Below are positions 27,390 to 32,069 of a DNA stretch of 32,069 bases, piece after piece. This stretch comes from Solirubrobacterales bacterium. GTDB lineage: Bacteria; Actinomycetota; Thermoleophilia; Solirubrobacterales; Solirubrobacteraceae. Position 1 is the first letter of the stretch, and every line of letters starts with the position of its first letter. A program made the translations under genes and the position numbers. The stretch lies in NCBI GenBank assembly GCA_003165655.1, contig PMOY01000063.1, forward strand, positions 1 to 32,069. Reading direction: 5' to 3'. A model generated the notes under the pieces. That model worked only from the letters and a program-made list of their open reading frames with translations. It searched no databases and had not been told where the DNA came from.

Positions 27390-29225
27390 ATGGACAGCAC
27401 GGCGCCTGCAGTCGGCGCTTTTCCCAGTCCGTTCTCGATCGAGGCCCCGCCGGGCTGCGAGGGCTGGCAGGAGATGTACCCCTACTACGCGCTGTTCGAC
27501 GAACGCCGGCGCGAGTCCGACGAGCCCCGCTTCTGGTTCTGGAACTCGATGCACTTCCCCGTACCGATGCCGGCGTTCGACGTGATCTGCATCGACTCCC
27601 CCTACCAAGCGGTGGGATCGTGGCAGAACCGCGTCTTCGCGGTGCCCCCGGCGATGGGCATCGACTACCGGATCGTCAATGGCTACGTCTACATCTCGGG
27701 CAATCCCGTCACCGATCCCGCCAAGATCGCCGAGCGCGCTGAGTTCTTCCAGAAGCGAGCGGGCTTCTACTACGAGAACTGGACCGAGCTCTACGGCAAG
27801 TGGCGGGCGAAGATGGAGTCGCTGATCGCAGAGCTCGGCGATCTGCACGTACCCGAGCTTCCGGAGTACGAGCCGGACGAGGTCGCCTTCGGCGATGACC
27901 GCAACACGGCGTTCTACGAGGTCCTCGACGCCTATGGCCGCGCGCTTCGGCTCGATGACCTCATGTGGCAGCACCACTTCGAGTTTCTCTTGCTCGGCTA
28001 CGGCGCCTACGGCACGTTCGTGGAGTTCTGCAAAGGTCACCTGCCCGACATTCCGGACCAGCACATCGCCCAGATGGTCGCGGGCATCGACGTGCTGCTG
28101 TTCAAGCCCGACGCGGAGCTGCGGCGCCTGGCGCGCCTCGCGCTCGACACGGGCGTCGATGGCGCGTTCGCTCAGGGTCGCTCGCCGGAGGAGATCGACG
28201 CAGCCCTCGAGCAGTCCGAGGCGGGCCGGAGCTGGCTGGAGGAGCTCGAGAAGGCGAAGGACCCGTGGTTCAACATGGCCACCGGCGACGGCCTATACCA
28301 CTACTACCGCAGCTGGCTCGACGATCCGAGCATCCCCTATGCGGCGTTGATCGGGTACGTCACCGCGCTCCGCTCGGGCGAGCAGATCGAGCGTCCCGCC
28401 GAGGAGATCAAGCGCGAGCGCGACCGACTCGCGTACGAGTACGGGGCGCTGCTCGACGACGACTCGCGCGGCGCCTTCAACAATCTCCTGGCTCTCTCGC
28501 GCACCGTGTTCCCCTATGTGGAAGAGCACAAGTTCTTCTGCGACTACTGGTTCCTCACCCGATGGTGGAACAAGATTCGCGAGTTCGGCGCGCTGCTCGC
28601 CGAGCGCGGCTTCCTGCAGGACGGCGAGGACATCTTCCAGCTCACGCGCCACGAGGTCGCCTCCGCGCTGGACGAGATGGTGCTCACCTGGGCCACCGGC
28701 GGTGAGCCGCTCGGTCCCAAGCACTGGCCGCCGATCGTCGCGCGCCGGAAGGAGATCCTTGAGAGGCTCGCGCAGTGGAACCCCCCGCCCGCTCTCGGCG
28801 TGACACCGGAGGCGATCACCGATCCGATGACGATCATGCTGTGGGGCGTGACGACCGAGCGCGTTCGGGAGTGGGCGCGTCAGCAGGACGGCGGCCGGGT
28901 GTTGAACGGTGCTGCGGCGTCGCCCGGCCTGATCGAAGGCGTCGCTCGCGTCGTCAAGTCCGTCAACGAGCTCTCGGACCTACAGGACGGCGAGATCCTC
29001 GTCTGCGGCAGTACATCGCCCGCGTGGGCACCGATCTTCTCGAAGATCAAGGCGACGGTCACCGACGTCGGCGGCGTCATGTCGCACGCCGCGATCGTCT
29101 GCCGCGAGTACGGGCTCCCGGCCGTGGTGGGCACGGGCCGCGCCACCTCGGAGATCCACACCGGACAGACGATTCGCGTCGACGGCACAGAGGGCGTCGT
29201 CACCCTGCTCGATGTGGAGGGGTAG
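27390..29225 (+). CDS. PEP-utilising (phosphohistidine) subunit of a split dikinase, phenylphosphate synthase subunit A-like
   Basis: C-terminal swivelling His domain DVGGVMSHAAIVCREYGLPAVVGTG; about 480-aa N-terminal region (GWQEMYPYYALFDERR...FWFWNSMHFP...NGYVYISGNPV...DPWFNMATGDG) resembling phenylphosphate synthase PpsA; no PEP/pyruvate TIM-barrel domain. Confidence 0.82.
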   Translation: MDSTAPAVGAFPSPFSIEAPPGCEGWQEMYPYYALFDERRRESDEPRFWFWNSMHFPVPMPAFDVICIDSPYQAVGSWQNRVFAVPPAMGIDYRIVNGYVYISGNPVTDPAKIAERAEFFQKRAGFYYENWTELYGKWRAKMESLIAELGDLHVPELPEYEPDEVAFGDDRNTAFYEVLDAYGRALRLDDLMWQHHFEFLLLGYGAYGTFVEFCKGHLPDIPDQHIAQMVAGIDVLLFKPDAELRRLARLALDTGVDGAFAQGRSPEEIDAALEQSEAGRSWLEELEKAKDPWFNMATGDGLYHYYRSWLDDPSIPYAALIGYVTALRSGEQIERPAEEIKRERDRLAYEYGALLDDDSRGAFNNLLALSRTVFPYVEEHKFFCDYWFLTRWWNKIREFGALLAERGFLQDGEDIFQLTRHEVASALDEMVLTWATGGEPLGPKHWPPIVARRKEILERLAQWNPPPALGVTPEAITDPMTIMLWGVTTERVREWARQQDGGRVLNGAAASPGLIEGVARVVKSVNELSDLQDGEILVCGSTSPAWAPIFSKIKATVTDVGGVMSHAAIVCREYGLPAVVGTGRATSEIHTGQTIRVDGTEGVVTLLDVEG

Positions 29226-29231
29226 CCGCTG

Positions 29232-30323
29232 ATGGCCGGCGCCGATGGTCTGGTGCAGTACAGCCGGCCGCTGAGCGAACTGCGGGCGGCCGACGAGTCC
29301 CGGTTCGGCGGCAAGAGCGCCGGCCTCGGCGAGCTGCTGGGCGCCGGAATCCCGGTGCCGGACGGCTTTGCGCTCTCGACCGCCGCCTTCAGCACGTTTC
29401 TCGTCCGGGCGGGCTTGGTACCCGAGATCGAACGGCGGCTGGCCTCGCTTCGCCTGGAGGACCTGGATTCCGTCGGCCTGGCCTGTGCTGAGATCGCCGA
29501 GGCCATCGGATCGGCCTCGGTCCCTGGCGCCGTCGAGGCGGAGATCGCCGGCGGCTACGCCGAGCTCGCTCGCGCCAGCGGCGAGTCCGCCCCGCCCGTC
29601 GCCGTGCGCTCCAGCGCGATCGGCGAGGACAGTGCCACCGACACCTTCGCCGGCCAGCAGCAGACACTCCTGTGGGTACGGGGAGCCGAGGATGTCACCC
29701 GCGCCGTGCGCGACTGCTGGGCAAGCCTCTATAGCCTGACCGCCGTCAGCTACCGGGCCAGGGCGGCCCGGGCCGGTGAGGCGCCGGCCATGGGTGTGGC
29801 CGTGCAGCTGATGGTCGATGCTTCGGTCTCGGGCGTGATGTTCACCTGTAACCCGGTCAGCGGCGATCCGAGCATCATCGCCGTCAACGCGAGCTGGGGT
29901 CTGGGCGAGGCGGTGGTCGGGGGGGAGGTGACGCCGGACGAGTACCTGCTCAGCAAGATCACCCGCGAGGTCGTCCGCACGCGCATCGGAGCCAAGCTGA
30001 TTGAGTACGTACCCGCACCCGCCGGCGGCGGGACCGTGCGGCGGGAGGTACCCGATGAGCGCCGGGAGGTCCCGTGCTTGCCGGAGGGCGCGCTCGGTGC
30101 GCTCGTCGACCTCGCGCGCCGGGTCGAGCGCCATTTCGGATCCCACCAGGACATCGAGTGGGCGATCGCGCGCGCCGGAGCGCTGCCCGACACCCTGTCG
30201 GTGTTGCAGTCGCGCCCCGTCACGGCGATACCCGAGCGCCAGCGTCGGCCACAGCCGCAATCCGCGATCTCGCTCGTGATGAGCACGTTCGGCGCCGGCC
30301 GGCCGCCGTCGATCGACGCCTGA
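29232..30323 (+). CDS. ATP-grasp (PPDK/PEP synthase N-terminal) subunit of a split dikinase, phenylphosphate synthase subunit B-like
   Basis: RFGGKSAGLGELLGAGIPVPDGFALSTAAF; VAVRSSAIGEDSATDTFAGQQQTLLWV; SGVMFTCNPVSGDPSIIAVNASWGLGEAVVGGEVTPDEY; ends after the ATP-grasp domain. Confidence 0.88.
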   Translation: MAGADGLVQYSRPLSELRAADESRFGGKSAGLGELLGAGIPVPDGFALSTAAFSTFLVRAGLVPEIERRLASLRLEDLDSVGLACAEIAEAIGSASVPGAVEAEIAGGYAELARASGESAPPVAVRSSAIGEDSATDTFAGQQQTLLWVRGAEDVTRAVRDCWASLYSLTAVSYRARAARAGEAPAMGVAVQLMVDASVSGVMFTCNPVSGDPSIIAVNASWGLGEAVVGGEVTPDEYLLSKITREVVRTRIGAKLIEYVPAPAGGGTVRREVPDERREVPCLPEGALGALVDLARRVERHFGSHQDIEWAIARAGALPDTLSVLQSRPVTAIPERQRRPQPQSAISLVMSTFGAGRPPSIDA

Positions 30324-30329
30324 TCTGGC

Positions 30330-30887
30330 ATGGCGCTCAGCAACGAAGACGTCCGCGAGATCCTGAGGATCATCGACACCACTCCGCTGGCTGAGCTGCG
30401 CATTGAGACTGAGGGGTTCTCGCTCCAGGTGCTGCGTCAGGGTCCGGCGATGGGCGACGCCGTCTCCCGGACTCCGGAAATGCAAGGAGTCCGGGAGACG
30501 GCGTCCCCCACCGCCGGTGGCGAACCTGGGGGTGGCACGGCGGCCGTCTCGATCGCCGCCTCCGCCGACTCCGCAGCCCCGGGCTCCGGCACGCCGGCGT
30601 CGCCCGGCGCCGCCGACACGCCCGCCGGCGCAGCCCCCGCCGACGGCCTGCTCACCGTCCAGGCGCCGATGCTTGGCATCTTCTATCGTGCCGAGTCGCC
30701 CGGTCAGCCGCCGTTTGTCGAGGTCGGCAGCCGGGTTGAGCCGGACACGACTGTGTGCATCATCGAGGTGATGAAGATGATGAACTCGGTGCCTGCCGGG
30801 GTCTCCGGGACGATCGTGGAGGTCTGCGAGGAGAACGCCGGGCTGGTCGAGTACGCGCAGCCGCTGTTCCGGGTGCAACCGGAATGA
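30330..30887 (+). CDS. accB: Biotin carboxyl carrier protein (AccB-like)
   Basis: Biotinylation motif IIEVMKMMNSVPAG; VQAPMLGIFYRAESPGQPPFVEVGSRV; Ala/Pro/Gly-rich linker. Confidence 0.93.
   Translation: MALSNEDVREILRIIDTTPLAELRIETEGFSLQVLRQGPAMGDAVSRTPEMQGVRETASPTAGGEPGGGTAAVSIAASADSAAPGSGTPASPGAADTPAGAAPADGLLTVQAPMLGIFYRAESPGQPPFVEVGSRVEPDTTVCIIEVMKMMNSVPAGVSGTIVEVCEENAGLVEYAQPLFRVQPE
30451..30510. repeat. 60-bp palindromic element (25-bp arms, one mismatch, 10-bp loop) inside the BCCP linker
   Basis: tgggcgacgccgtctcccggactcc - ggaaatgcaa - ggagtccgggagacggcgtccccca; 20 of the inner arm bp are perfect, then one mismatch, then 4 more. Confidence 0.95.
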
Positions 30888-30903
30888 GCGGCGAGGGGGT
30901 GCG

Positions 30904-32069
30904 GTGACGATCACGCGGGTGTTCGTGCCCAACCGGGGCGAGATCGCCTTGCGGATCGTGCGCGCGTGCCGGAAGCTCGGGGTGGAGAGCGTGGTCGGTA
31001 CCTCGGATGTCGACCGCGACGGAGTCGCCGCGCTCAGCGCCGACCGGGCGGTCTGTCTCGGTCCGGGACCGGCGGCCGACAGCTACCTGCGCGACGACGT
31101 CGTGGTGCAGGCGGCGCTGGGCACCGGCTGCGACGCGATCCACCCGGGATACGGCTTCCTGTCCGAGAGCCCACAGCTGGCGAGGCGGGCGAGGGAGCAC
31201 GGGCTCGTGTTCGTGGGCCCGTCCCCTGAGGTGATCGAGCTTGCAGGCGACAAGGTGCGGGCTCGTCGCGAGGCGGCTCGCGCCGGGCTGGCGGTCCTGG
31301 CGGGGCAGGAGGTGCAGTCCGCGGCGGACGCCCATGAGGTGGCGGAGCGGATCGGTTACCCGATCCTCGTCAAGGCGGCCGGCGGGGGTGGCGGGCGCGG
31401 CATCAAGCTTGCGCAGAGCTCCACCCGCCTCGAGGAGCTCCTCGCTCTCGCGGGCCGCGAGGCGAGCGCGGCGTTCGGCGACGACCGCCTCTACCTCGAA
31501 CGTTTCATCGCGGCCGCGCGTCATGTCGAAGTGCAGGTCGCCGCCGACGAGCACGACGTGATCGAGCTGGGCGAGCGCGACTGCTCGGTTCAGCGGCGGT
31601 ACCAGAAGGTGATCGAGGAGGCGCCCGCGCCGTCGCTCCCGGAATCCGCACGCGACGCGCTGAGGACCGCCGCCGTGACGTTCGCGCGTGCGATCTCGTA
31701 CCGCAACCTGGGGACCGTCGAGTTCGTCCTTGACGCCGACAGCGGCCGGTTCTCCTTCCTCGAGATGAACTGCCGGATCCAGGTCGAGCACCCGGTGACC
31801 GAGGCGCTCACCGGCTGCGACCTCGTCTGCGAGCAGCTGCGAATCGCCGGCGGCGGTTCGCTGAGCCTCTCTCAATCGCAGGTCGCCTGCGAGGGGCACG
31901 CCGTCGAATGCCGGCTGACTGCCGAAGACGCCGAGCGCGGCTTCAGGCCGAGTCCGGGCACGATCTCGCGGTTCTCGATTCCGCTCCTGCCCGGCCTGCG
32001 CATCGACACGCACTGCGCAGCGGGGACGCGCGTGCCCCCGTTCTATGACTCCCTGCTGGCCAAGCTGAT
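30904..32069 (+). CDS. accC: Biotin carboxylase (AccC-like), 3'-truncated by the window edge; absent from the supplied ORF track
   Basis: GTG start; own translation VTITRVFVPNRGEIALRIVRACRKLGVES...IHPGYGFLSESPQLARRA...VKAAGGGGGRGIKLA...GERDCSVQRRYQKVIEEAP...FLEMNCRIQVEHPVTEALTG. Confidence 0.93.
   Translation, partial: MTITRVFVPNRGEIALRIVRACRKLGVESVVGTSDVDRDGVAALSADRAVCLGPGPAADSYLRDDVVVQAALGTGCDAIHPGYGFLSESPQLARRAREHGLVFVGPSPEVIELAGDKVRARREAARAGLAVLAGQEVQSAADAHEVAERIGYPILVKAAGGGGGRGIKLAQSSTRLEELLALAGREASAAFGDDRLYLERFIAAARHVEVQVAADEHDVIELGERDCSVQRRYQKVIEEAPAPSLPESARDALRTAAVTFARAISYRNLGTVEFVLDADSGRFSFLEMNCRIQVEHPVTEALTGCDLVCEQLRIAGGGSLSLSQSQVACEGHAVECRLTAEDAERGFRPSPGTISRFSIPLLPGLRIDTHCAAGTRVPPFYDSLLAKL

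What the first reader, a model, noticed from the sequence alone, without database searches (positions are those of the whole stretch)
27390..32069. Split phenylphosphate-synthase-like dikinase directly followed by BCCP and biotin carboxylase: candidate phosphorylation-coupled carboxylation system
Sequence: one + strand operon encodes a 611-aa phosphohistidine-domain protein (GGVMSHAAIVCREYGLPAVVG) with a large unusual N-terminal region, a 363-aa ATP-grasp protein (PPDK_N type), then BCCP (EVMKMM) and biotin carboxylase; gaps are 6, 6 and 16 bp. Knowledge: this two-protein split without a PEP/pyruvate barrel is the architecture of phenylphosphate synthase of anaerobic phenol degraders (Thauera aromatica), where ATP yields a phosphoryl-enzyme that phosphorylates phenol, and carboxylation is then done by a UbiD-type, not biotin-type, enzyme. 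Inference: pairing with BC/BCCP suggests activation of a phenol, enol or ketone substrate linked to biotin-dependent carboxylation (conceptually like acetone carboxylase, which also passes through an enol phosphate). I know of no described system with this gene set.
Basis: partly seen in the sequence, partly recalled or inferred. Interest (0 to 1): 0.85.

Follow-up and report, generated by a model that had tools for sequence, protein, structure and literature searches.

The report
Hpe-type phenolic-ketone kinase–carboxylase operon
This soil bacterium carries an operon that probably attaches phosphate to a plant-derived phenol and then adds CO2 to its side chain with a biotin enzyme; the same pathway was worked out in Rhodococcus in 2022, so this is a new lineage of a known system, not an unknown one.

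Summary
Relatives, and a second contig of the same genome, supply what follows: a pyruvate-carboxylase-type carboxyltransferase and a NagD-like phosphatase. This is the gene set and order of the hpe/acv (hydroxyphenylethanone) pathway of Rhodococcus rhodochrous GD02 and Sphingobium SYK-6 (PMC9618137, PMC12167813, PMC13101465). There, a two-part dikinase phosphorylates the phenol OH of 4-hydroxyacetophenone or acetovanillone, a biotin enzyme carboxylates the acetyl methyl, and phosphatase and CoA steps yield 4-hydroxybenzoate or vanillate. The closest PDB sequence to the ATP-grasp gene is HpeI (9GOJ). The operon is conserved across Solirubrobacterales and Rubrobacter but forms its own branch, about 49% identical to a Rhodococcus HpeH, so the exact substrate is inferred. 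A twist not met in the papers read: some relatives have H–carboxyltransferase–phosphatase modules lacking the ATP-grasp, BCCP and BC genes.

The parts
27390..29225 (+). hpeH/acvA-like phenolic kinase, substrate-binding plus swivel (phosphohistidine) subunit, 611 aa; catalytic His566 predicted
   Evidence: PF00391 at 532-602; NF006153 913 bits; AlphaFold model pLDDT 89.8, best PDB match over about 600 columns is rifampin phosphotransferase, E 5e-18; 48.7% identical to H of a Rhodococcus hpe cluster (L140), 46.7% to Azoarcus PpsA (L138), 42.8% to a cre-like H (L139)
29232..30323 (+). hpeI/acvB-like ATP-grasp subunit, 363 aa
   Evidence: PF01326 E 3e-94; best PDB sequence match is 9GOJ (HpeI), E 1.2e-83, 44% identity
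30330..30887 (+). biotin carboxyl carrier protein (hpeC-like), biotinyl Lys149 in EVMKMM
   Evidence: PF00364 E 2e-16; TIGR00531 114.6 bits against a cut-off of 115.2; motif
30904..32069 (+). biotin carboxylase (AccC-like), last ~56 residues lost at the contig end
   Evidence: PF00289, PF02786, partial PF02785; complete homologues of 444-448 aa in relatives

Best explanation
The four genes are the first part of a hydroxyphenylethanone (Hpe/Acv-type) catabolic operon of a Solirubrobacterales bacterium. Inferred mechanism: the ATP-grasp subunit (29232-30323) uses ATP to phosphorylate His566 of the swivel domain of the 611-aa subunit (AMP + Pi formed); the swivel domain turns to the N-terminal rifampin-phosphotransferase-like pocket and phosphorylates the phenol OH of a 4-hydroxyphenyl ketone (most likely 4-hydroxyacetophenone or acetovanillone). 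Biotin carboxylase charges BCCP with CO2 (one ATP), and a pyruvate-carboxylase-type carboxyltransferase, lying just beyond the contig end, moves the carboxyl group to the acetyl methyl of the phospho-ketone. A NagD-like phosphatase removes the phosphate, an acetoacetate-CoA-ligase-like enzyme makes the beta-ketoacyl-CoA, and an amidohydrolase-family beta-ketoacyl-CoA hydrolase releases 4-hydroxybenzoate or vanillate for the protocatechuate branch. Shown here: gene content, order, conservation, predicted fold and catalytic motifs, and homologues of every downstream step in the same genome. Inferred: chemistry and substrate, by homology with the assayed Rhodococcus enzymes.
For: Same gene set and order H-I-BCCP-BC-CT-phosphatase-(CoA ligase) in a Rhodococcus plasmid cluster whose I protein is 97% identical to crystallised HpeI (L140) and in annotated Rhizobium leguminosarum L136, which adds an amidohydrolase. 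Products of the published hpeHICBADEF cluster have these activities in vitro for kinase, carboxylase and phosphatase (PMC9618137). Close relatives continue H-I-BCCP-BC-CT-D, and Rubrobacter taiwanensis and its kin add the ligase. Own genome: contig C277 begins inside the carboxyltransferase (residue ~122) and goes on into the phosphatase and an AraC regulator, the layout of the relatives. Elsewhere in the genome: CoA ligase, 67%; amidohydrolase, 62%, on the same contig as pobA and pcaH. H model resembles rifampin phosphotransferase, as published for HpeH. TxxGGxMxH motif as in HpeH, with Met not Thr two residues before the His.
Against: H is only 48.7% identical to the Rhodococcus HpeH-type protein, little more than to PpsA (46.7%). 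The H tree puts the window with carboxylase-linked H proteins, but the node joining them with Hpe has only 87/87 support, and the I tree 81/52. The CT tree makes Solirubrobacterales/Rubrobacter a separate clade. Substrate is therefore not fixed. The carboxyltransferase and phosphatase are on another contig, with about 0.5 kb missing between. CoA ligase and hydrolase are unlinked and could serve other pathways (acetoacetate; p-coumarate).
Confidence: 0.85

Rival explanations
1. Same chemistry, different substrate: the operon acts on another phenolic ketone (for example a longer-chain 4-hydroxyphenyl ketone, or an acetosyringone-like syringyl ketone) rather than 4-hydroxyacetophenone/acetovanillone. 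(A sub-case of the best explanation, so the two confidences overlap.)
For: The window H and CT form their own clades, separate from the Rhodococcus Hpe and Aromatoleum Xcc-like clusters. Kinase specificity differs among known Hpe/Acv pathways (PMC13101465). Rubrobacter relatives have a GMC oxidoreductase immediately upstream of H, suggesting a carbinol precursor.
Against: The genome holds PobA- and PcaH-type genes with a HpeF-like hydrolase on the same contig, as expected for release of 4-hydroxybenzoate. Nothing points to a particular other ketone.
Confidence: 0.35
2. Phenylphosphate synthase for phenol para-carboxylation (Thauera type), with BC/BCCP only an adjacent acetyl-CoA carboxylase.
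For: The H/I pair is homologous to PpsAB: 46.7% and about 39% identity to the Azoarcus pair.
Against: A true pps cluster (Azoarcus KH32C) has a CBS-domain protein and ppcBDAG/UbiD/UbiX genes; none follows here. H-I-BCCP-BC-CT-phosphatase is conserved in relatives. The CT is PYC/OADA type, not an acyl-CoA carboxyltransferase.
Confidence: 0.03
3. A cresol-type (CreHI) kinase: phosphate as a handle for oxidation, with the carboxylase unrelated.
For: CreHI is a homologous actinobacterial kinase (PMC9618137).
Against: A cre-like cluster (L139) has P450, ferredoxin, reductase, HD-domain and aldehyde dehydrogenase genes, absent downstream here; H identity to it is lower, 42.8%.
Confidence: 0.02
4. 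Chance neighbourhood: PEP-synthase-like genes beside a housekeeping AccBC.
For: BCCP and BC score near AccB/AccC models.
Against: Arrangement conserved in at least 14 contigs of one order and in Rubrobacter, with H identities from 69 to 84%. Genes of the other H clades in the same order mostly lack BC/BCCP, so adjacency follows this clade.
Confidence: 0.01

Closest known systems
Hpe pathway of Rhodococcus rhodochrous GD02 (hpeHICBADEF; PMC9618137, PMC12167813)
   Same: Same gene families in the same order: two-part dikinase, BCCP, BC, PYC-type CT, NagD-like phosphatase; CoA-ligase and hydrolase homologues in the genome; I protein matches 9GOJ best.
   Different: About 49% (H, against the L140 proxy) and 44% (I) identity; separate phylogenetic branch; ligase and hydrolase homologues lie on other contigs in this genome; substrate untested.
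Acv pathway of Sphingobium lignivorans SYK-6 (described in PMC13101465)
   Same: Kinase, three-part carboxylase and phosphatase in one cluster, CoA steps elsewhere in the genome, as here.
   Different: Alphaproteobacterial; its sequences were not retrieved here.
XccABC-type cluster of Aromatoleum (4-hydroxyacetophenone; L127 from A. toluclasticum)
   Same: BCCP, BC, CT, phosphatase, H and I in one cluster.
   Different: Carboxylase genes come before H-I; H 43.7% identical; distinct clade in all three trees.
Phenylphosphate synthase PpsAB(C) plus phenylphosphate carboxylase (Azoarcus KH32C, L138)
   Same: Homologous two-part phenol dikinase.
   Different: Has a CBS-domain third subunit and UbiD-type carboxylase, no biotin enzyme.
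CreHI 4-cresol kinase cluster (L139-like)
   Same: Homologous two-part phenol dikinase.
   Different: Surrounded by oxidation genes, no carboxylase.
Rifampin phosphotransferase
   Same: Predicted fold of H and ATP-grasp/swivel design.
   Different: Single chain, antibiotic substrate, about 18% identity.

Membership tests
Hpe/Acv pathway | Two-part dikinase HpeH + HpeI, adjacent | tested here: met
Hpe/Acv pathway | Catalytic phosphohistidine in T/SxxGGxxxH with Met (not Thr) two residues before | tested here: met
   TDVGGVMSH, His566; motif from PMC12167813
Hpe/Acv pathway | BCCP + BC + PYC-type carboxyltransferase in the same operon | tested here: met
   BCCP and BC in window; CT in the same operon in relatives, and on own contig C277 that starts mid-CT. 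The physical join C7-C277 is inferred.
Hpe/Acv pathway | NagD-like HAD phosphatase after the carboxylase | tested here: met
   C277 phosphatase, 72% identical to that of L048
Hpe/Acv pathway | CoA ligase and beta-ketoacyl-CoA hydrolase (in the operon in GD02, elsewhere in SYK-6) | tested here: met
   Unlinked homologues at 67% and 62% identity; their role in this pathway is not shown
Hpe/Acv pathway | H and I nest with characterised HpeH/HpeI | tested here: inconclusive
   Support 87/87 for H, 81/52 for I
Hpe/Acv pathway | Phosphorylation of 4-hydroxyacetophenone/acetovanillone and carboxylation of the phosphorylated ketone only | not testable with these tools
   needs enzymology
Phenylphosphate synthase/carboxylase (phenol) | CBS-domain subunit and UbiD-type ppc genes next to ppsAB | tested here: not met
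   After H-I come BCCP-BC-CT-D in window relatives; ppc genes present in Azoarcus L138
4-cresol Cre cluster | P450 and oxidoreductase genes around creHI | tested here: not met
   Gene content downstream against L139
Acyl-CoA carboxylase | AccA/AccD or PccB-type carboxyltransferase | tested here: not met
   CT is PYC_OADA/HMGL-like
Acetone/acetophenone carboxylase (biotin-independent) | Biotin-independent carboxylase subunits | tested here: not met
   BCCP/BC present; no such genes among the annotated neighbours

The most novel reading that the evidence does not exclude
In Solirubrobacterales the pathway is modular: the substrate-recognising parts (H, carboxyltransferase, phosphatase) exist as separate H-CT-D or H-I-CT-D units in genomes that also hold complete operons, so one set of energising subunits (ATP-grasp, BCCP, BC) may serve several substrate-specific sets, giving interchangeable phospho-carboxylases for different phenolic ketones.
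Probability: 0.3. Interest if true: 0.55.

Novelty: new member of a known kind. Interest (0 to 1): 0.33.

Why it matters
Complete, contiguous kinase-carboxylase clusters were called uncommon (52 of 836 cases, cited in PMC13101465; only four further syntenic genomes in PMC9618137). Finding them conserved in uncultured soil Solirubrobacterales and in Rubrobacter taiwanensis widens the known reach of lignin-ketone breakdown, supplies divergent and possibly heat-stable enzymes for lignin conversion, and lets the conserved order be used to annotate PRK08296 'hypothetical proteins'. The H-CT-D modules suggest a testable rule for which subunits carry specificity.

Tried and rejected
MarK paper (PMC12624787) not held. 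Only one held paper contains both 'hydroxyacetophenone' and 'Solirubrobacter', once each. Reference sequences of GD02, Actinomadura macra and SYK-6 were not retrieved by the single genome-contig scan; L140 served as the Hpe reference through its 97% match to 9GOJ. Own-genome hits on C198 and C293 were examined as possible second H/I copies and set aside: only a 55-residue end match and a weak PPDK_N match. A UbiD-type, cre-type or acyl-CoA-carboxylase reading was rejected on gene content. The overlapping minus-strand ORFs (for example 28980-30932) were rejected on codon-position G+C.
Full report
What is there. The window is the whole contig C7 of a draft Solirubrobacterales-type genome (4.2 Mb, 434 contigs, about 76% complete; the affiliation is inferred from its same-genus relatives G018, G016 and others, whose contigs are named Solirubrobacterales MAGs). 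At its right end four genes run in one direction: 27390-29225, 29232-30323, 30330-30887 and 30904 to the end, spaced 6, 6 and 16 bp. Domains: a C-terminal PEP-utilizer swivel domain on a 611-aa protein whose first ~530 residues match no Pfam family, a PPDK_N ATP-grasp protein, a biotin/lipoyl carrier and a biotin carboxylase truncated at residue 388.

The 'large unusual N-terminal region' is known. The whole protein fits the PRK08296 family (913 bits, cut-off 578). An AlphaFold2 model from 27 homologues (pLDDT 89.8, pTM 0.90) matches only rifampin phosphotransferase over its length (E 5e-18, TM 0.60 on the query), as Dexter et al. reported for HpeH (PMC12167813). The ATP-grasp protein's best PDB sequence is 9GOJ, crystallised HpeI, E 1.2e-83. 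The motif TDVGGVMSH with His566 fits the T/SxxGGxxxH rule given for HpeH.

The known system. In Rhodococcus rhodochrous GD02 the hpeHICBADEF genes degrade acetovanillone and 4-hydroxyacetophenone. HpeHI phosphorylates the phenol, HpeCBA (biotin) carboxylates only the phosphorylated ketone, HpeD removes the phosphate, and HpeE and HpeF are proposed to make the CoA ester and cleave it (PMC9618137). [quoted passage not shown] A Rhodococcus plasmid cluster (L140), whose I protein is 97.4% identical to 9GOJ over 343 residues, has the order H, I, BCCP, BC, CT, phosphatase, CoA ligase. Rhizobium leguminosarum L136 shows the same plus an amidohydrolase.

Completing the operon. A carboxyltransferase profile made from seven relatives (A1) finds, in the same genome, contig C277 beginning at about CT residue 122, followed by the phosphatase (72% identical to that of L048) and an AraC-family regulator, as in relatives L043 and L048. 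So C277 is very probably the next piece, with about 0.5 kb missing; this join is inferred. The CT is PYC_OADA/HMGL type and carries the LKDPGGLL stretch. Elsewhere in the genome: a CoA ligase 67% identical to the operon-linked one of L048, and on one contig (C415) a protocatechuate dioxygenase beta subunit, a PobA (586 bits, cut-off 351), PcaB- and PcaF-like genes, and an amidohydrolase 62% identical to the one in the Rhizobium cluster. A full route to the beta-ketoadipate pathway is thus plausible.

Conservation. Of 232 genomes of the order, 27 have a strong H match. Counting places with H at least 63% identical, window included: 21. Fourteen have H-I-BCCP in a row, each continuing into BC or running off the contig; two have H-I-CT-D without BCCP/BC; two have H-CT-D; one has H with the I-BCCP-BC-CT set about 5 kb on; one has H alone; one is cut by the contig end. 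Rubrobacter taiwanensis and a Rubrobacteraceae MAG carry the full set with the CoA ligase.

Phylogeny. In the H tree the window clade (15 rows, 100/100) is sister (99/99) to carboxylase-linked H proteins of Rhizobium, Agrobacterium and Burkholderiales, then to the Rhodococcus/Blastococcus Hpe group (87/87), away from the cre-like, pps and Xcc-like proteins. The I tree agrees but with weak deep nodes. The CT tree gives Solirubrobacterales and Rubrobacter one clade. This supports the same kind of pathway but leaves the exact substrate open.

Verdict. It is a new, divergent lineage of the Hpe/Acv kind. What is fresh is its conservation in Solirubrobacterales and Rubrobacter and the split H-CT-D modules, where H and CT overlap by 4 bp (L064: 7547-9379 and 9376-10851) in genomes that also hold complete operons (L070 and L063 come from the same MAG as L064).

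Noticed in passing
L064:7547-11662, L066:8169-12284 (also L071 and L192): H-CT-phosphatase modules without ATP-grasp, BCCP or BC genes (L071 and L192 keep I), in genomes that, for L064 and L066, also carry other copies of the carboxylase genes; suggests shared energising subunits.
   Followed up: partly
L140:12995-16484: In a cluster whose HpeI is 97% identical to 9GOJ, predicted masses are BCCP 17.6, BC 49.5 and CT 57.5 kDa in gene order. PMC9618137 gives HpeC 17.4, HpeB 49.3, HpeA 57.4 kDa but calls HpeB the carboxyltransferase and HpeA the biotin carboxylase; the two labels look swapped.
   Followed up: partly
window:25993-26247: Short alpha/beta-hydrolase remnant (84 aa, matching only the start of PF12697); relatives have an intact gene of about 245 aa at the same place (L048:7492-8232). 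Decay or a sequence error.
   Followed up: partly
window:21053-26000: Divergent upstream block (xylose-isomerase-like TIM barrel and TPP-dependent E1 dehydrogenase genes) recurs upstream of the operon in L041, L043 and L048; link to the pathway unknown.
   Followed up: partly
L067:301-2244, L068:3336-5279: In Rubrobacteraceae a GMC oxidoreductase with a gluconate-2-dehydrogenase-subunit-3-like domain lies immediately upstream of H (2 bp gap), perhaps making the ketone from a carbinol.
   Followed up: partly
L192, L197, L203, L204 (G119): One single-contig genome has four H homologues: one H-I-CT-D, one complete H-I-BCCP-BC-CT-D of a different clade, and two H-I pairs without carboxylase.
   Followed up: partly
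L137:9983-14493: Thermomicrobium roseum plasmid has H-I next to a convergent accC with no BCCP or CT beside it.
   Followed up: no
L210:4461-13949: Own contig C415 groups pca, pob, an aldehyde dehydrogenase, a MaoC-like protein and a HpeF/CouO-like hydrolase: a 4-hydroxybenzoate catabolic island.
   Followed up: partly
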